DNA of 64,000 nucleotides from Agriterribacter humi (GTDB lineage Bacteria; Bacteroidota; Bacteroidia; Chitinophagales; Chitinophagaceae), in NCBI RefSeq assembly GCF_009192765.1, contig NZ_VOHQ01000006.1, positions 1 to 64,000 of the forward strand, read 5' to 3'. How positions within the stretch are numbered: position 1 is the stretch's first letter; each line of letters opens with the position of its first letter. Position numbers and translations under genes: made by a program. The notes beneath the pieces were generated by a model that had not been told where the DNA came from, did not search any database, and was given only the letters and a program-made list of their open reading frames with translations. This document shows positions 19,949 to 23,760 of the stretch, piece by piece.

Positions 19949-19991
19949 ATGTGGGAATTTGAGAATGTGAAAATGTGGAGAAATGCAAGTC

Positions 19992-20029
19992 GGTGCGGCC
20001 GGCACGCGACAAATGTAGCGTCAGTCCGC
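19992..20029 (+). repeat. Dispersed repeat with GGCACGCGACAAA core, copy 2
   Basis: Second copy of the element at 11774-11815: CGGTGCGGCCGGCACGCGAC followed by AAAT, then AGCGTCAG. It lies between fmt and the convergent small OB-like gene, after a stretch of AATGTGAAAATG words (19950-19980). Confidence 0.65.
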
Positions 20030-20060
20030 TGTGAAAATGATATAAACTATGAACTACAAA

Positions 20061-20327
20061 CTACAAATCCTCCTTTATTTCTTTTGCCAAAAATAAATTC
20101 CGGTCTAATATCCCTGTAGCCGTTATGCTTTTTCCTGCAAGTATTTCAAGTGATGCATCCTTGAATGGGTTGCCGCCCAATTTCCTTAAAATATAAGATT
20201 TGTTTTCGGTTTGTAACAATACTGCATTGCGCTCCGATTTGGAACCCTCAGAAGTTTTTTTCATCACAACTTTCCCTGAAAGCTGTACCTCCTTTATCTT
20301 ACCCGTATTTTTTTTACCTCCGCTCAT
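20061..20327 (-). CDS. Small OB-fold-like protein, third gene of the protease operon
   Basis: The 88-residue product is read from the ATG at 20327, which lies inside the end of the upstream protease gene (14-base overlap). The alternative longer frame adds 21 residues of that gene's antiphase sequence and is unlikely. It begins with a basic SGGKKNTGK segment. It then shows a beta pattern VQLSGKVVMKK, ERNAVLLQTENKSYILRKLGG, GKSITATGILDRNLFLAKEI, which fits a small OB or beta-barrel fold of the kind found in DUF5818-like proteins. No signal peptide or membrane segment. Function unknown; the overlap suggests translational coupling and a partner or regulator of the two proteases. Confidence 0.7.
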   Translation of the reverse strand: MSGGKKNTGKIKEVQLSGKVVMKKTSEGSKSERNAVLLQTENKSYILRKLGGNPFKDASLEILAGKSITATGILDRNLFLAKEIKEDL

Positions 20328-21819
20328 ATATTCTCCACCCCAGTAGCTGGTCCTGGGATTCTTTAACCACCAGTACTTTAATATTATCAAAACCTACTGA
20401 CCCTGGTGTGGAAATTTCTTTAACGAAAGTACGGAATCTGGCTGTGCGGGGTGCGAGTTTCTTTTCTGCCATGCTCTGCGGGCTGGCTTTTATAGTGGCC
20501 TTATACAACCCCTTTTTGTCGTAAGCAGTAAAACCTGTTTCCTTTAGCAGTGTATTGATGTCTTTTTGATGAGCAGACGGTGTTACGTTTTTTTCTTTAT
20601 GGCTGGGTGCAAGACTCTTTTTTAGATCGGTGCCTTTATTGAATAATTTCATTCTTGTATTTTGTACTGTATTCTTAGAAACCACTTTTTTTACGCTTTC
20701 ATCAATTACTGCTAACACCGAGGGGTCGCCAAGCAAATGAAACTGGGCGATGGTTTTTAATTCATAAGGGTCGAGATGGGGCCCTGATTCGCTCAAAAAT
20801 TGTTGTCTTGCCTGTAGCAATGCCCTTCCTGTTGATGCGCCACCAATAATATTTTTTATAAAATACTGTGTTACCAAATCTGCAAGCCCCTGCGAGTCCG
20901 CTGGGCCGTATGCGATATTGCTGCTGCCCATAAAAGCAATAGCATTGTTCTTTAAATAATTATTGGCAATGCTTAAAGCGCCGGGTTGAGGAAGCAGGTC
21001 GGGGTTTACCAATTCGGCGCCGAAGCAACACTCTGCTGCTACAATGGTTCCCTCGCTGATCTTGCCGTTCAATTGTGTTGAACTGAGCGCTATCGGGTAA
21101 TTGCTTCCTTTTTGTCCGTAAAAAGCCATGTCGTTTTGTGCGCCGTGGCAATTGTAAAAATGAGTAAGTTTTTTTAATTGGGCAGTGGTATACTTATTTT
21201 TTGAACCCGGGCTTAGCAGGAGATTGTTATGATTGCCAACGATGTTCTGCAGGCTCAGTTGGGTTGATACACGCCATACCCATGCGCTTACACCAAAATA
21301 CTCCATATACAATTCCTCCTTCCGGGGTTTGGCATTTATGATGTTGTTGATGATGGTTGTAAAGTATTGTATGTCATTTTCACCGGGCACATCAGGAATG
21401 CGGCCTACCACACGGGTAGGTCCTGTAAAGGATTGTACGTTCCTGCTGTAGGGAGCATCGCAGGCATAGGGAAGATCGGACGGAACGATCAAATCTCCAT
21501 CTGCATCAGCAGGATTATTGATCTCCTGGAATGGAAATATATCCTGCGAACCTGCCAGCACAATGTAATCCGGTATATGTTTTTTATACAGGTCATCCAC
21601 GGCTCTTTTGCATTCCCTTGCATTTACATTTTTTACCGGTTTAATACCAGCCTGTTTTGCAGAAGTGGCATCATCTATAAATACAATGCGGGTTGCTATG
21701 CCCCTTTTTTTATCGGCCGTTTTCAGGTTTTGAAGCAGTTTTTTTATTTTAGAAAATTGGGTACCATACTTTAATGTCAGCGTGCTTTTGGCAGAGACAA
21801 TAATTTTTTTAGCATACAT
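20314..21819 (-). CDS. Intracellular C25/caspase-fold (clan CD) cysteine protease
   Basis: The 501-residue protein has no signal peptide. Gingipain-like features: IPDYIVLAGSQDIFPF (82-97), the VVGRIPDVPGEND segment (137-149), a His-Gly dyad part H225-G226 in NCHGAQND, and a catalytic Cys (C264 or C265) in AAECCFGAEL. NAIAFMGSSNIAYGP (292-306) and HLLGDPSVL near 361-369 are close to the LLGDPSL ending of C25 proteases. Residues 375-501 are a Lys/Ser-rich linker and a small C-terminal module unlike gingipain tails. C25 proteases are normally secreted by the type IX system; this one appears cytosolic. It lies 30 bases after the subtilisin gene and overlaps the OB-like gene. Confidence 0.75.
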   Translation of the reverse strand: MYAKKIIVSAKSTLTLKYGTQFSKIKKLLQNLKTADKKRGIATRIVFIDDATSAKQAGIKPVKNVNARECKRAVDDLYKKHIPDYIVLAGSQDIFPFQEINNPADADGDLIVPSDLPYACDAPYSRNVQSFTGPTRVVGRIPDVPGENDIQYFTTIINNIINAKPRKEELYMEYFGVSAWVWRVSTQLSLQNIVGNHNNLLLSPGSKNKYTTAQLKKLTHFYNCHGAQNDMAFYGQKGSNYPIALSSTQLNGKISEGTIVAAECCFGAELVNPDLLPQPGALSIANNYLKNNAIAFMGSSNIAYGPADSQGLADLVTQYFIKNIIGGASTGRALLQARQQFLSESGPHLDPYELKTIAQFHLLGDPSVLAVIDESVKKVVSKNTVQNTRMKLFNKGTDLKKSLAPSHKEKNVTPSAHQKDINTLLKETGFTAYDKKGLYKATIKASPQSMAEKKLAPRTARFRTFVKEISTPGSVGFDNIKVLVVKESQDQLLGWRIYERR

Positions 21820-21849
21820 GGTAGTTGGTATTAAAGGTGTACAATAATA

Positions 21850-23565
21850 TTATATTGATAACTGTTGCAGAAACCCTTTTAAGCTTGCGGAACTGCCGGG
21901 ATGGGAGATCACTGCTTCGGTAAATTGTTTCCATTTTCTTATACCTACTCTTTCGTAAGGGAGGGTTTCATCATCAATTAACTTTGATAGTTCGGGGTAA
22001 GTATAAACCAATTGTGCCAGTTCTGTATTATACATCTGCATAACGGGTATAGCCTGTGGATTTTTATTTTTAAACAGCGTGCTCAGCACAGGGAACCAGG
22101 GCACATGATCTTCCGGTGTTTTTGTTGCGCCTGTTGTTACCGGAATTTTCAATGCATCATTGGCCTGCAATATGCCATTGCCAAAATAATGATGATAGGG
22201 CAGGGGCGCATGCTTTACTATTTTTTTTGCAGATGTGTACAACGCATGGCGCACGGCTTCCACACGTTGCCACGGTTGGAGCTTGTTCAACTGGTCAAAA
22301 TACTTTTTATAATAAATAGCGGCGGCGGCAGCAACCTGGGGTACAGCACACGAAGTGCCGGCTCCGTCAAAGCTAATATTATTTGCTGCTGTGTTTACCC
22401 ACGGCATATTAGGCGTAAATGCCGCTAATGCTTTTTTCATATACCGCTTAGGTCCAAAGCAGCCCTGCATTTCACCCGGTTTCAGTGTAAAATAAGGTTC
22501 CATATTGTAGGTAACGCCACAGGCTGCAATTACTCTTCCAAACCGGGCGGGATATATTACATGCCTGGTGGGTAAGCCATTAAAATTATTCCCCGCGGCA
22601 GATACAATAGCAATGCCTGCATTGTATGCCGCATTCACGGCTGTTGCCCACGATGCGGAAGGCGCACCTCCCATGCTTAATGATACAACATGAACAGGTG
22701 TACCACTGGCAGTGAGTTGGGTGATATAGTTCAACGCCTCTGCCAAAGCACTTGTTTTTAATAATACTACCGAAGATGCAATTCTGCAGCAAATAACTTC
22801 AGCAAACCAGGCGCCGCCTAAATAATCATTGAATTCACCTTTACTTGCCGGCGCTTTAATTTTATTGCCGGCAAGCAGGCCCAGGGTTGCTGTGCCATGG
22901 CCGGGCATTTTTAAAAAGCCATCTTTTAACGGGTCGTGTGCGTCATCCACTGGTTCCCCTTCAACGAAATTGTGTTGCCATTTATTTGCCTTTGCACTAT
23001 CCGGTACAGTAAAATGGGTACGACTGTAGCCCGTATCCAGGTGAGCAACGCGTATAACCGGTTCTCTATCCTGCACGCTTTCCCTTGCTGATTTTAACTG
23101 TGAATATGCGTCATCTAAGTGCCAGATCATATTTTGATGGGGCGGCCAGTCTTTATCGTAATTGATATCATTATTCCTGTTCCCGAAAGATTTGGCATCT
23201 GTCTTTCCCGGTTCGGTGCTAACTTTTCTATTAATGGGAAACTCCTGTAAAAAATCCGGCTCCACAAATGTATGAGGATCGTTTAAAGCAGTGCGGGCCA
23301 TATGCGCCACATCCCAGGGGTTTACTTCGGCATCATTGATTTTTGTTTTGGTATATGTATTTTCAGGAATAGTGGTTTTGTATTTTGATTTGGATGAGGC
23401 AGAACGTACACCAGCCGCTTTTTTTACCGAATGCACAGGAATGCCTGCCGCTTCCAGGCATTTTTGTATTTCCTTTTCATTGCTGGGAAGCATACCGCCT
23501 TTAGTTTGCGGCGCTTCAGCATTTTGCCGGATAATAATTTCAACTGGCTGGTTGTAACATTTCAT
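21850..23565 (-). CDS. Intracellular subtilisin-like serine protease (S8)
   Basis: The 571-residue protein has no signal peptide. The S8 catalytic residues are all present: D177 in VAHLDTGYSRTH, H223 in PGHGTATLGLLAG, the oxyanion N326 in SAAGNNF, and S405 in GAGTSCAVPQVAA. The N-terminal 165 residues are a non-catalytic region with an early linker (SVKKAAGVRSASSKSK) and no prodomain I recognise. Residues about 470-571 form a helical C-terminal extension (ELAQLVYTYPELSKLID, KWKQFTEAVISHPG). It heads a three-gene minus-strand operon. Activity as a protease is well supported; substrate and role are not known. It could activate the downstream cysteine protease or be its target. Confidence 0.85.
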   Translation of the reverse strand: MKCYNQPVEIIIRQNAEAPQTKGGMLPSNEKEIQKCLEAAGIPVHSVKKAAGVRSASSKSKYKTTIPENTYTKTKINDAEVNPWDVAHMARTALNDPHTFVEPDFLQEFPINRKVSTEPGKTDAKSFGNRNNDINYDKDWPPHQNMIWHLDDAYSQLKSARESVQDREPVIRVAHLDTGYSRTHFTVPDSAKANKWQHNFVEGEPVDDAHDPLKDGFLKMPGHGTATLGLLAGNKIKAPASKGEFNDYLGGAWFAEVICCRIASSVVLLKTSALAEALNYITQLTASGTPVHVVSLSMGGAPSASWATAVNAAYNAGIAIVSAAGNNFNGLPTRHVIYPARFGRVIAACGVTYNMEPYFTLKPGEMQGCFGPKRYMKKALAAFTPNMPWVNTAANNISFDGAGTSCAVPQVAAAAAIYYKKYFDQLNKLQPWQRVEAVRHALYTSAKKIVKHAPLPYHHYFGNGILQANDALKIPVTTGATKTPEDHVPWFPVLSTLFKNKNPQAIPVMQMYNTELAQLVYTYPELSKLIDDETLPYERVGIRKWKQFTEAVISHPGSSASLKGFLQQLSI

Positions 23566-23760
23566 AGCATCAATTCAAGTTATCAGAAAACAGGAAGGGA
23601 ACGGAACAGTTAAAGGGCTACAACTGGTAAACAGTAATAGATCAGTAAATTTAATAATTGTTACTGGCAGATTAATACTGTAAAGCTATATTTAAAATCT
23701 TTGAAAATATGTCTTTGTATTTGAAGCCGTAACTTGTAATATAAAACAATACAATAGTAC

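What the first reader, a model, noticed from the sequence alone, without database searches (positions are those of the whole stretch)
20061..23565. Tight operon of two intracellular proteases of different classes plus an OB-like protein
A subtilisin-like S8 protease (D177, H223, S405), a C25/gingipain-like cysteine protease (H225, C264/C265, LLGDPS ending) and an 88-residue beta protein are encoded on one strand with a 30-base gap and a 14-base overlap. Neither protease has a signal peptide, although C25 enzymes are normally exported. Paired proteases of clan CD and clan SB without secretion signals recall proteolytic conflict or cell-death modules, in which one protease activates another. I know of no described system with this exact trio. 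The function is inference.
Basis: partly seen in the sequence, partly recalled or inferred. Interest (0 to 1): 0.75.

Follow-up and report, generated by a model that had tools for sequence, protein, structure and literature searches.

The report
Cytosolic two-protease module with small partner
Two proteases of unrelated classes and a small protein form a compact gene cassette in a bacterium; the second protease and the small protein go together across distant bacteria, and the first belongs to a protease group that relatives fuse to caspases, which points to a built-in self-destruct or defence switch that is still untested.

Summary
In detail: S8 subtilase (21850-23565), C25 cysteine protease (20314-21819) and an 88-aa protein (20061-20327), all minus strand, 30-bp gap and 14-bp overlap, catalytic residues conserved, no export signal found. 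The conserved unit differs from the trio. C25 plus the small protein are adjacent in 23 of 23 loci read (the window's phylum and alphaproteobacterial plasmids); a related S8 gene sits beside them in 3 of 23. The small protein has a Lys in [ST]-K-[SM] in 23/23 (KSE[RH] in 17), and 21/23 C25 proteins end in Arg or Lys; gingipain-type C25 enzymes cut after Arg/Lys (recalled). I infer that the small protein inhibits the protease. The S8 belongs to a clade which, in 7 of 8 places examined, is tied to a clan CD protease: C25 next door (3) or a fused caspase (4, one in the same genus); the eighth is fused to trypsin beside SIR2 and nSTAND1 genes. This supports a proteolytic conflict module, but activity, trigger and target are untested, and other loci have neighbours that fit rival readings. 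The window's three proteins hit no PADLOC model. The cassette is absent between the same flanking genes in two congeners.

The parts
21850..23565 (-). S8 subtilase, 571 aa, no export signal found; N-terminal segment with NPWDxAH...FVEPD, catalytic D177 (23035-23037), H223 (22897-22899), S405 (22351-22353), conserved C-terminal segment about 500-571 (helical by eye)
   Evidence: Pfam PF00082 E=4.1e-19; alignment of 13 clade members; codons checked
20314..21819 (-). C25-family (clan CD) cysteine protease, 501 aa, no export signal found; H225 (21145-21147), C264/C265 (21025-21030), C-terminal region about 370-501 ending in Arg-Arg (20317-20322)
   Evidence: Pfam PF01364 E=8.6e-10; invariant columns of A1; 23 of 23 keep NCHG and ECC[FY]G, 21 of 23 end in R/K; codons checked
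20061..20327 (-). 88-aa small protein, partner and inferred inhibitor of the C25 protease
   Evidence: directly downstream of C25 in 23 of 23 loci; no Pfam or PADLOC family at E<=1, one chance-level NCBIfam hit; weak DUF5818 match in 4 of 15 alignment members, best E 1e-4
20229..20246 (-). G-S-K-S-E-R segment of the small protein; Lys30 (20238-20240)
   Evidence: alignment A2; Lys present in 23 of 23; codons checked
19949..23760 (.). interval between a formyltransferase (fmt-type) gene and a DUF5009 gene that holds the cassette
   Evidence: in two congeners (L062, L063) the two genes lie under 75 bp apart with no trio; gene names by Pfam

Best explanation
A cytosolic proteolytic switch. The C25 protease is made together with, and held inactive by, the small protein, whose conserved Lys-bearing segment (GSKSER) sits in the Arg/Lys-type active site as a pseudo-substrate; the basic C-terminus of the protease may help to hold it off as well. 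In the full version of the cassette an S8 subtilase of a conflict-associated clade, itself with a pro-domain-like N-terminal segment, acts as the upstream (or parallel) protease. On a trigger, probably an invader, inhibition is lifted (for instance by cleavage of the inhibitor), and the proteases cut cellular or invader proteins, causing arrest or death. Shown: gene layout, C25-small pairing, conserved catalytic residues, conserved Lys, basic C-terminus, no export signal by simple tests, the S8 clade's ties to clan CD proteases and once to SIR2/nSTAND1, absence of the cassette at the same site in two congeners. Inferred: inhibition, order of activation, trigger, target, outcome.
For: C25 and small gene adjacent in 23/23 loci of the window's phylum and of alphaproteobacterial plasmids, 12/23 with a start codon giving the same 14-bp overlap; in the plasmid collection the 10 records with C25 are exactly the 10 with the small protein. 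Lys kept in 23/23 small proteins; R/K as last residue of C25 in 21/23, and in 9 of the 11 loci without the 14-bp overlap. In genus g7, 8 of 8 pair-bearing genomes found have the pair beside the same gene, and G229 has at that place an intact small gene and no trace of C25, as expected of an antidote that can outlive its protease. S8 clade: of 8 places examined, 3 beside C25, 4 fused to caspase (one of them by eye), 1 fused to trypsin with SIR2_2 and nSTAND1 next door; 4 of 7 plasmid S8 records have an MBL-type gene next to the S8, and the two such genes scanned hit LmuA and RTasMBL models. Cassette missing at the same site in two congeners. Patchy occurrence: 7 of 244 family genomes, own and one weak match included.
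Against: No defence gene among the ten neighbouring proteins scanned; PADLOC finds none of the three. In 20 of 23 loci no S8 of this clade accompanies the pair, and 5 of 8 pair-bearing genomes searched have no S8 relative at E<=0.001, a sixth only a weak one, so a two-protease relay cannot be general. In genus g7 the pair is at one chromosomal place in 8 of 8 genomes, more like a stable gene than a roaming defence cassette. On rhizobial plasmids the neighbours are cell-wall-lytic or oxidative enzymes rather than classic defence genes. The one distant C25 relative outside the clade (G158, E=1e-6) has no small partner. Arg/Lys specificity is recalled from gingipains; this family shows no significant similarity to the one other C25 of the genome. 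The loop is not uniform: KSES in 3, KSQH in 2, KMAH in 1 of 23; the solitary small protein of G229 has KSES too.
Confidence: 0.43

Rival explanations
1. Effector and immunity protein: the C25 protease (and the S8) are delivered into other cells by a contractile or other secretion device, and the small protein is the producer's immunity protein.
For: Neighbours in some relatives are lytic enzymes, at least some without a signal peptide by eye: Tle1-like phospholipase, a GDPD-type gene and an amidase in L008; YkuD, chitosanase and caspase-GDSL in L016 and L021; phage-type lysozyme domains in L021; around a plasmid S8, GH25 and amidase in L029; a Rap1a/Tai immunity protein is annotated in L016.
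Against: I noticed no secretion-system gene in the flanks, but did not search for one by profile; the window's ten scanned neighbours include no such effector set; S8 relatives are fused to caspase or sit with SIR2/nSTAND1, intracellular themes.
Confidence: 0.2
2. Maturation proteases: C25 (and S8) trim or activate another locally encoded enzyme, as the subtilisin-like QhpE is known to do for quinohemoprotein amine dehydrogenase (recalled); the small protein is a substrate or adaptor.
For: In L015, L017, L018 and L020 the pair lies with related genes of ferritin-like, LodA-like and radical SAM type, in the first three also halogenase type (annotation and BLAST clusters; Pfam on L017 and parts of L020, with the LodA matches below Pfam's cut-off); the S8 has a weak QhpE match, E=5e-4, 19 bits against a cut-off of 165.
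Against: No member of these clusters in the window stretch or in the loci L008-L014, none seen by eye in L075 and L080; the flanks of L076-L079 and L081 were only compared with L080's genes.
Confidence: 0.12
3. Ordinary protein quality control: constitutive intracellular proteases with a regulatory subunit.
For: Fixed position of the pair in genus g7; intracellular subtilisins appear among the weak PDB matches of the S8.
Against: Patchy occurrence and the S8 clade's ties to caspase, SIR2 and nSTAND1.
Confidence: 0.12

Closest known systems
NTP-dependent and peptidase-based conflict systems of Kaur et al. 2020 (PMC7159879; sections 32 and 33 read, 12 of 28 term passages seen)
   Same: Several intracellular peptidases of different classes in one operon, predicted proteolytic cascade; subtilisin (S8) domains named in the NucA-trypsin systems; caspase domains in others; STAND NTPase links.
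   Different: No NucA, trypsin, EAD, MoxR or vWA match in the trio or the ten neighbours scanned; the words C25 and gingipain do not occur in that paper's held text.
Caspase-S8 fusion proteins of the same bacterial family (L046, L047, L049 by Pfam; L048 by eye)
   Same: Same S8 clade with the same conserved C-terminal segment, coupled to a clan CD protease.
   Different: Caspase (C14) in one chain with the S8 instead of a separate C25 gene; no relative of the small protein detected there.
Staphopain-staphostatin and similar protease-inhibitor operons (recalled; only search listings and abstracts' first lines seen)
   Same: Cysteine protease gene followed directly by a gene for a small cytosolic protein.
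   Different: Staphopains are secreted papain-like enzymes; here C25 without export signal; inhibition untested.
Gingipains and PorU-type C25 enzymes
   Same: Pfam Peptidase_C25 above cut-off, His and Cys motifs.
   Different: No export signal or T9SS domain found; HMMER finds no alignment between this family and the genome's own PorU2-like C25, hhalign only a non-significant one.
Mycosins (T7SS-associated S8 proteases, TIGR03921)
   Same: Best NCBIfam match of the window's S8, E=2e-16.
   Different: 60 bits against a cut-off of 279; no T7SS gene among the ten neighbours scanned.
Bacterial gasdermin systems with protease partners (recalled; PADLOC holds models named caspase and subtilase, their link to gasdermin is recalled)
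   Same: Caspase-S8 relative L047 hits both PADLOC models.
   Different: No gasdermin among the ten neighbours scanned; the window's proteins hit no PADLOC model.

Membership tests
Peptidase family C25 (Pfam PF01364) | profile match above the curated cut-off | tested here: met
   38.8 bits against 23
Peptidase family C25 (Pfam PF01364) | catalytic His and Cys conserved | tested here: met
   NCHG and ECC[FY]G in 23 of 23; which of C264/C265 is catalytic is not settled
Exported C25 (gingipain/T9SS cargo) | signal peptide and T9SS C-terminal sorting domain | tested here: not met
   no hydrophobic N-terminus by hydropathy (no dedicated predictor used); no sorting-domain hit in the window protein or in 14 scanned members; weak PorU_rel_Nterm in 4 of 14, best E 0.0027
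Peptidase family S8 | profile match and D-H-S triad | tested here: met
   69.4 bits against 21.8; triad present in 13 of 13 aligned
Caspase-S8 conflict proteins | S8 of the same clade with shared C-terminal segment | tested here: met
Caspase-S8 conflict proteins | fused caspase (C14) domain | tested here: not met
   no C14 match in the window S8; a C25 gene lies next to it instead
NucA-trypsin systems (Kaur et al. 2020, system 3) | NucA endonuclease plus trypsin core, EAD1 | tested here: not met
   no such match in the trio or in the 10 neighbouring proteins scanned
Bacterial gasdermin system | gasdermin gene beside the protease | tested here: not met
   the 10 neighbours scanned match phosphorylase, FKBP, NamZ, formyltransferase, DUF5009, QRPTase, SUI1, tRNA synthetase, thioesterase and DUF6089 models
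Protease-inhibitor (staphostatin-like) pair | small gene directly downstream, constant partner | tested here: met
   23 of 23 loci; the distant C25 of G158 lacks it
Protease-inhibitor (staphostatin-like) pair | small protein inhibits the protease | not testable with these tools
   needs biochemistry or a complex model; the structure tool folds single chains only
Known defence systems (PADLOC-DB 2023) | model match for any of the three proteins | tested here: not met
   0 families at E<=1

The most novel reading that the evidence does not exclude
A previously undescribed kind of toxin-antidote pair: a cytosolic clan CD (C25) protease silenced by a small beta-rich protein through a Lys-bearing pseudo-substrate loop, spread over the window's phylum and plasmids of Alphaproteobacteria, and in some lineages wired to a subtilase so that cutting the antidote releases the protease: a bacterial counterpart of an initiator-executioner protease relay in which a gingipain-like enzyme takes the place of the caspase.
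Probability: 0.22. Interest if true: 0.82.

Novelty: new variant of a known kind. Interest (0 to 1): 0.6.

Why it matters
C25 proteases are known (recalled) as exported virulence enzymes and secretion sortases; a cytosolic branch with a constant small partner would add a new clan CD enzyme to the bacterial conflict and cell-death repertoire, where caspases and CHAT proteases are the known clan CD actors. The pair is small, has a sharp prediction (one Lys in the partner, one Cys in the protease) and can be tested in a laboratory strain.

Tried and rejected
Structure: AlphaFold of the small protein alone gave pLDDT 59 and of C25 with a 3-row alignment pLDDT 46; both are too poor, and Foldseek against the PDB gave nothing at E<=0.001. 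I used both prediction jobs; giving the small protein without an alignment was a poor choice. The OB fold is therefore neither shown nor excluded. Sequence searches in the PDB found no convincing relative of C25 or of the small protein. No relative of C25 was found in the viral contigs by pattern scan or in the phage records by tblastn. GC content of the cassette is like its surroundings, so it gives no sign of recent import. Annotated S8 gene in L017 (1619-3769): not matched by the window's S8 at E<=0.001, so not counted. Papers: asked for C25, gingipain, caspase, subtilase and conflict or defence terms in various combinations; I saw listings only, often a small part (15 of 5,418, 12 of 991, 15 of 56, 10 of 64, 10 of 36; none at all), and passages or sections of PMC7159879 and passages of PMC8195603. 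None of what I saw describes the C25-small pair; subscription papers and preprints are not covered. DUF5818 is in no paper of the library.

Dropped before counts: G158 (weak C25 match, E=1e-6, 864-residue frame, no small partner) is not in the 23; 3 of the 10 plasmid records with the pair (H4, H7, H8) were not fetched and are not in the 23, though their hit coordinates put the two genes side by side; S8 relative G071 was not fetched and is not in the 8 S8 places; of the 7 plasmid S8 records, L027 carried no annotation and was not read. In the genus search 8 of 12 genomes held the DUF5009 gene; I fetched five of the seven others.
Full report
What is there. Pfam confirms S8 (E=4e-19) and C25 (E=9e-10); the small protein has no family, and none of the three hits PADLOC-DB. 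No export signal was seen by hydropathy and no T9SS sorting-domain match. The only other C25 found in this genome is a PorU2-like sortase, to which this family shows no significant similarity.

The core is a pair. Relatives of the C25 protein were found in 7 of 244 genomes of the bacterial family (own included, one weak), 10 of 396 in the order (own included), 2 of 395 in the phylum (own included), two further MAG loci and 10 plasmid records of Rhizobium, Bradyrhizobium, Sinorhizobium and Novosphingobium; none in phage records or viral contigs. I read 23 loci: the window, L008-L014 (7), seven of the ten plasmid loci (L015-L021), L050, and L075-L081 (7). In 23 of 23 the small gene follows C25 directly; 12 of 23 have a start codon that gives the same 14-bp overlap. 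The plasmid records with the small protein are exactly those with C25. In 238 family genomes the small protein was found in 7: six with C25, and G229. In genus g7 the pair lies beside the same enolase-type gene in 8 of 8 pair-bearing genomes, and G229 has at that place an intact small gene and no trace of C25: C25 appears to have been lost there and its partner kept.

What the pair looks like. C25 keeps NCHG and ECC[FY]G in 23 of 23. The small protein is variable (31-46% identity to the window's in 14 relatives) but keeps a Lys in the frame [ST]-K-[SM] in 23 of 23; the following residues read SE[RH] in 17, SES in 3, SQH in 2 and MAH in 1. 21 of 23 C25 proteins end in Arg or Lys, although their C-terminal region is otherwise variable. 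On the first 16 loci a simple binomial against the region's own R+K content gives about 3e-9, which ignores kinship; where the genes overlap, the end is also constrained by the next gene, but 9 of the 11 loci without the 14-bp overlap keep it too. Gingipain-type C25 enzymes cut after Arg or Lys (recalled). The simplest reading is a protease with a pseudo-substrate inhibitor; binding and inhibition are inferred.

The S8 partner. An S8 of this clade lies beside the pair in 3 of 23 loci: the window, G049 (L010) and L008. Five of eight pair-bearing genomes searched lack any S8 relative at E<=0.001 and a sixth has only a weak one. In the family, 8 of 238 genomes hold an S8 match at E<=1e-30, own included; in 395 genomes of the phylum only the own one reached 1e-40. 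Of 8 places examined (7 of these 8 genomes plus L008), three are beside C25, four are fused to a caspase domain (G095, G028 of the same genus, and G209 by Pfam, the first cut by the contig end and weak, E=0.005; G150 by eye) and one (G152) is fused to a trypsin domain and followed by SIR2_2 and nSTAND1-TPR-FHA genes. The triad is present in 13 of 13 aligned proteins, the C-terminal segment is shared, and the N-terminal NPWD...FVEPD segment is present in variants in all but L029, whose reading starts later. In plasmids, 7 records hold S8 relatives, none of them a record with C25; four have an MBL-type gene next to the S8 (L024, L025, L026, L029; two of them by eye), and the two scanned hit LmuA and RTasMBL models of PADLOC. 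So the S8 clade occurs in proteolytic and conflict-type contexts and, in the window's family, mostly with clan CD partners.

Setting. The window's cassette lies between a formyltransferase (fmt-type) and a DUF5009 gene amid housekeeping genes. In two congeners these two genes are under 75 bp apart (L062, L063); in three others the DUF5009 gene has other neighbours and no trio in the stretch fetched. Base composition does not stand out.

Other contexts. On rhizobial plasmids the pair lies with ferritin-like, LodA-like (below cut-off), radical SAM and halogenase-type genes (L015, L017, L018; a variant in L020), or with caspase-GDSL, chitosanase, YkuD and DUF3616 genes (L016, L021); in L008 the trio follows a Tle1-like phospholipase gene and a GDPD-type gene. 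These support the rivals (delivered effector with immunity; maturation protease). Together with the fixed place of the pair in genus g7 they keep my confidence below one half.

Literature. Kaur et al. 2020 (PMC7159879, sections 32 and 33 read, passages elsewhere) describe multi-peptidase conflict systems, including S8 domains beside trypsin and NucA; the words C25 and gingipain do not occur. PMC8195603 (passages) has neither word, nor subtilisin. The listings, of which I saw only the top rows, showed no description of the pair; the library lacks most subscription papers and all preprints.

Verdict.

Noticed in passing
L047 6765-9407; L048 3690-6329; L049 6358-9087; L046 3478-5709: Caspase (C14)-subtilase (S8) fusion proteins in several genomes of the same family, one in the window's genus. 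In L048 and L049 the next gene looks CHAT-like by eye, but the L049 protein has no Pfam match at E<=0.01 and no PADLOC match; in L049 a caspase-lipase protein follows.
   Followed up: partly
L045 943-7585: Three-gene operon S8-trypsin fusion, SIR2_2, nSTAND1-TPR-FHA: looks like a conflict system; no PADLOC match at E<=0.001 for the SIR2 and nSTAND1 proteins.
   Followed up: partly
L024 7794-13035; L025 8250-12792; L026 7818-12711; L029 7833-12509: On plasmids, the S8 is extended by a long C-terminal region with an HExxH...HE motif (metallopeptidase-like, by eye only) and is followed by an MBL-type gene (LmuA/RTasMBL matches in the two scanned).
   Followed up: partly
L017 11115-17083; L015 977-7472; L018 9886-16410; L020 2151-6854: Ferritin-like, LodA-N-like and LodA-C-like (both below cut-off), radical SAM and, except in L020, Trp-halogenase-type genes beside the C25 pair: perhaps a split quinone-cofactor oxidase with its maturation genes.
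   Followed up: no
L044 8327-8584 (-): Solitary small-protein gene, intact, motif TTKSES, with no trace of C25, at the place where congeners carry the pair.
   Followed up: yes
L016 2596-9786 and L021 9552-15683: Caspase-GDSL, chitosanase, YkuD and DUF3616 genes next to the C25 pair on rhizobial plasmids, with a Rap1a/Tai immunity protein annotated in L016.
   Followed up: partly
L008 3945-5768 and 12904-13668: Tle1-like phospholipase and a GDPD-type gene upstream of the S8-C25-small trio and an amidase downstream in a MAG labelled Bacteroidales.
   Followed up: partly
L064 (G000 contig 12): The genome's other C25 gene is a PorU2-like T9SS sortase (NCBIfam NF052324, above cut-off on the part scanned).
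   Followed up: partly
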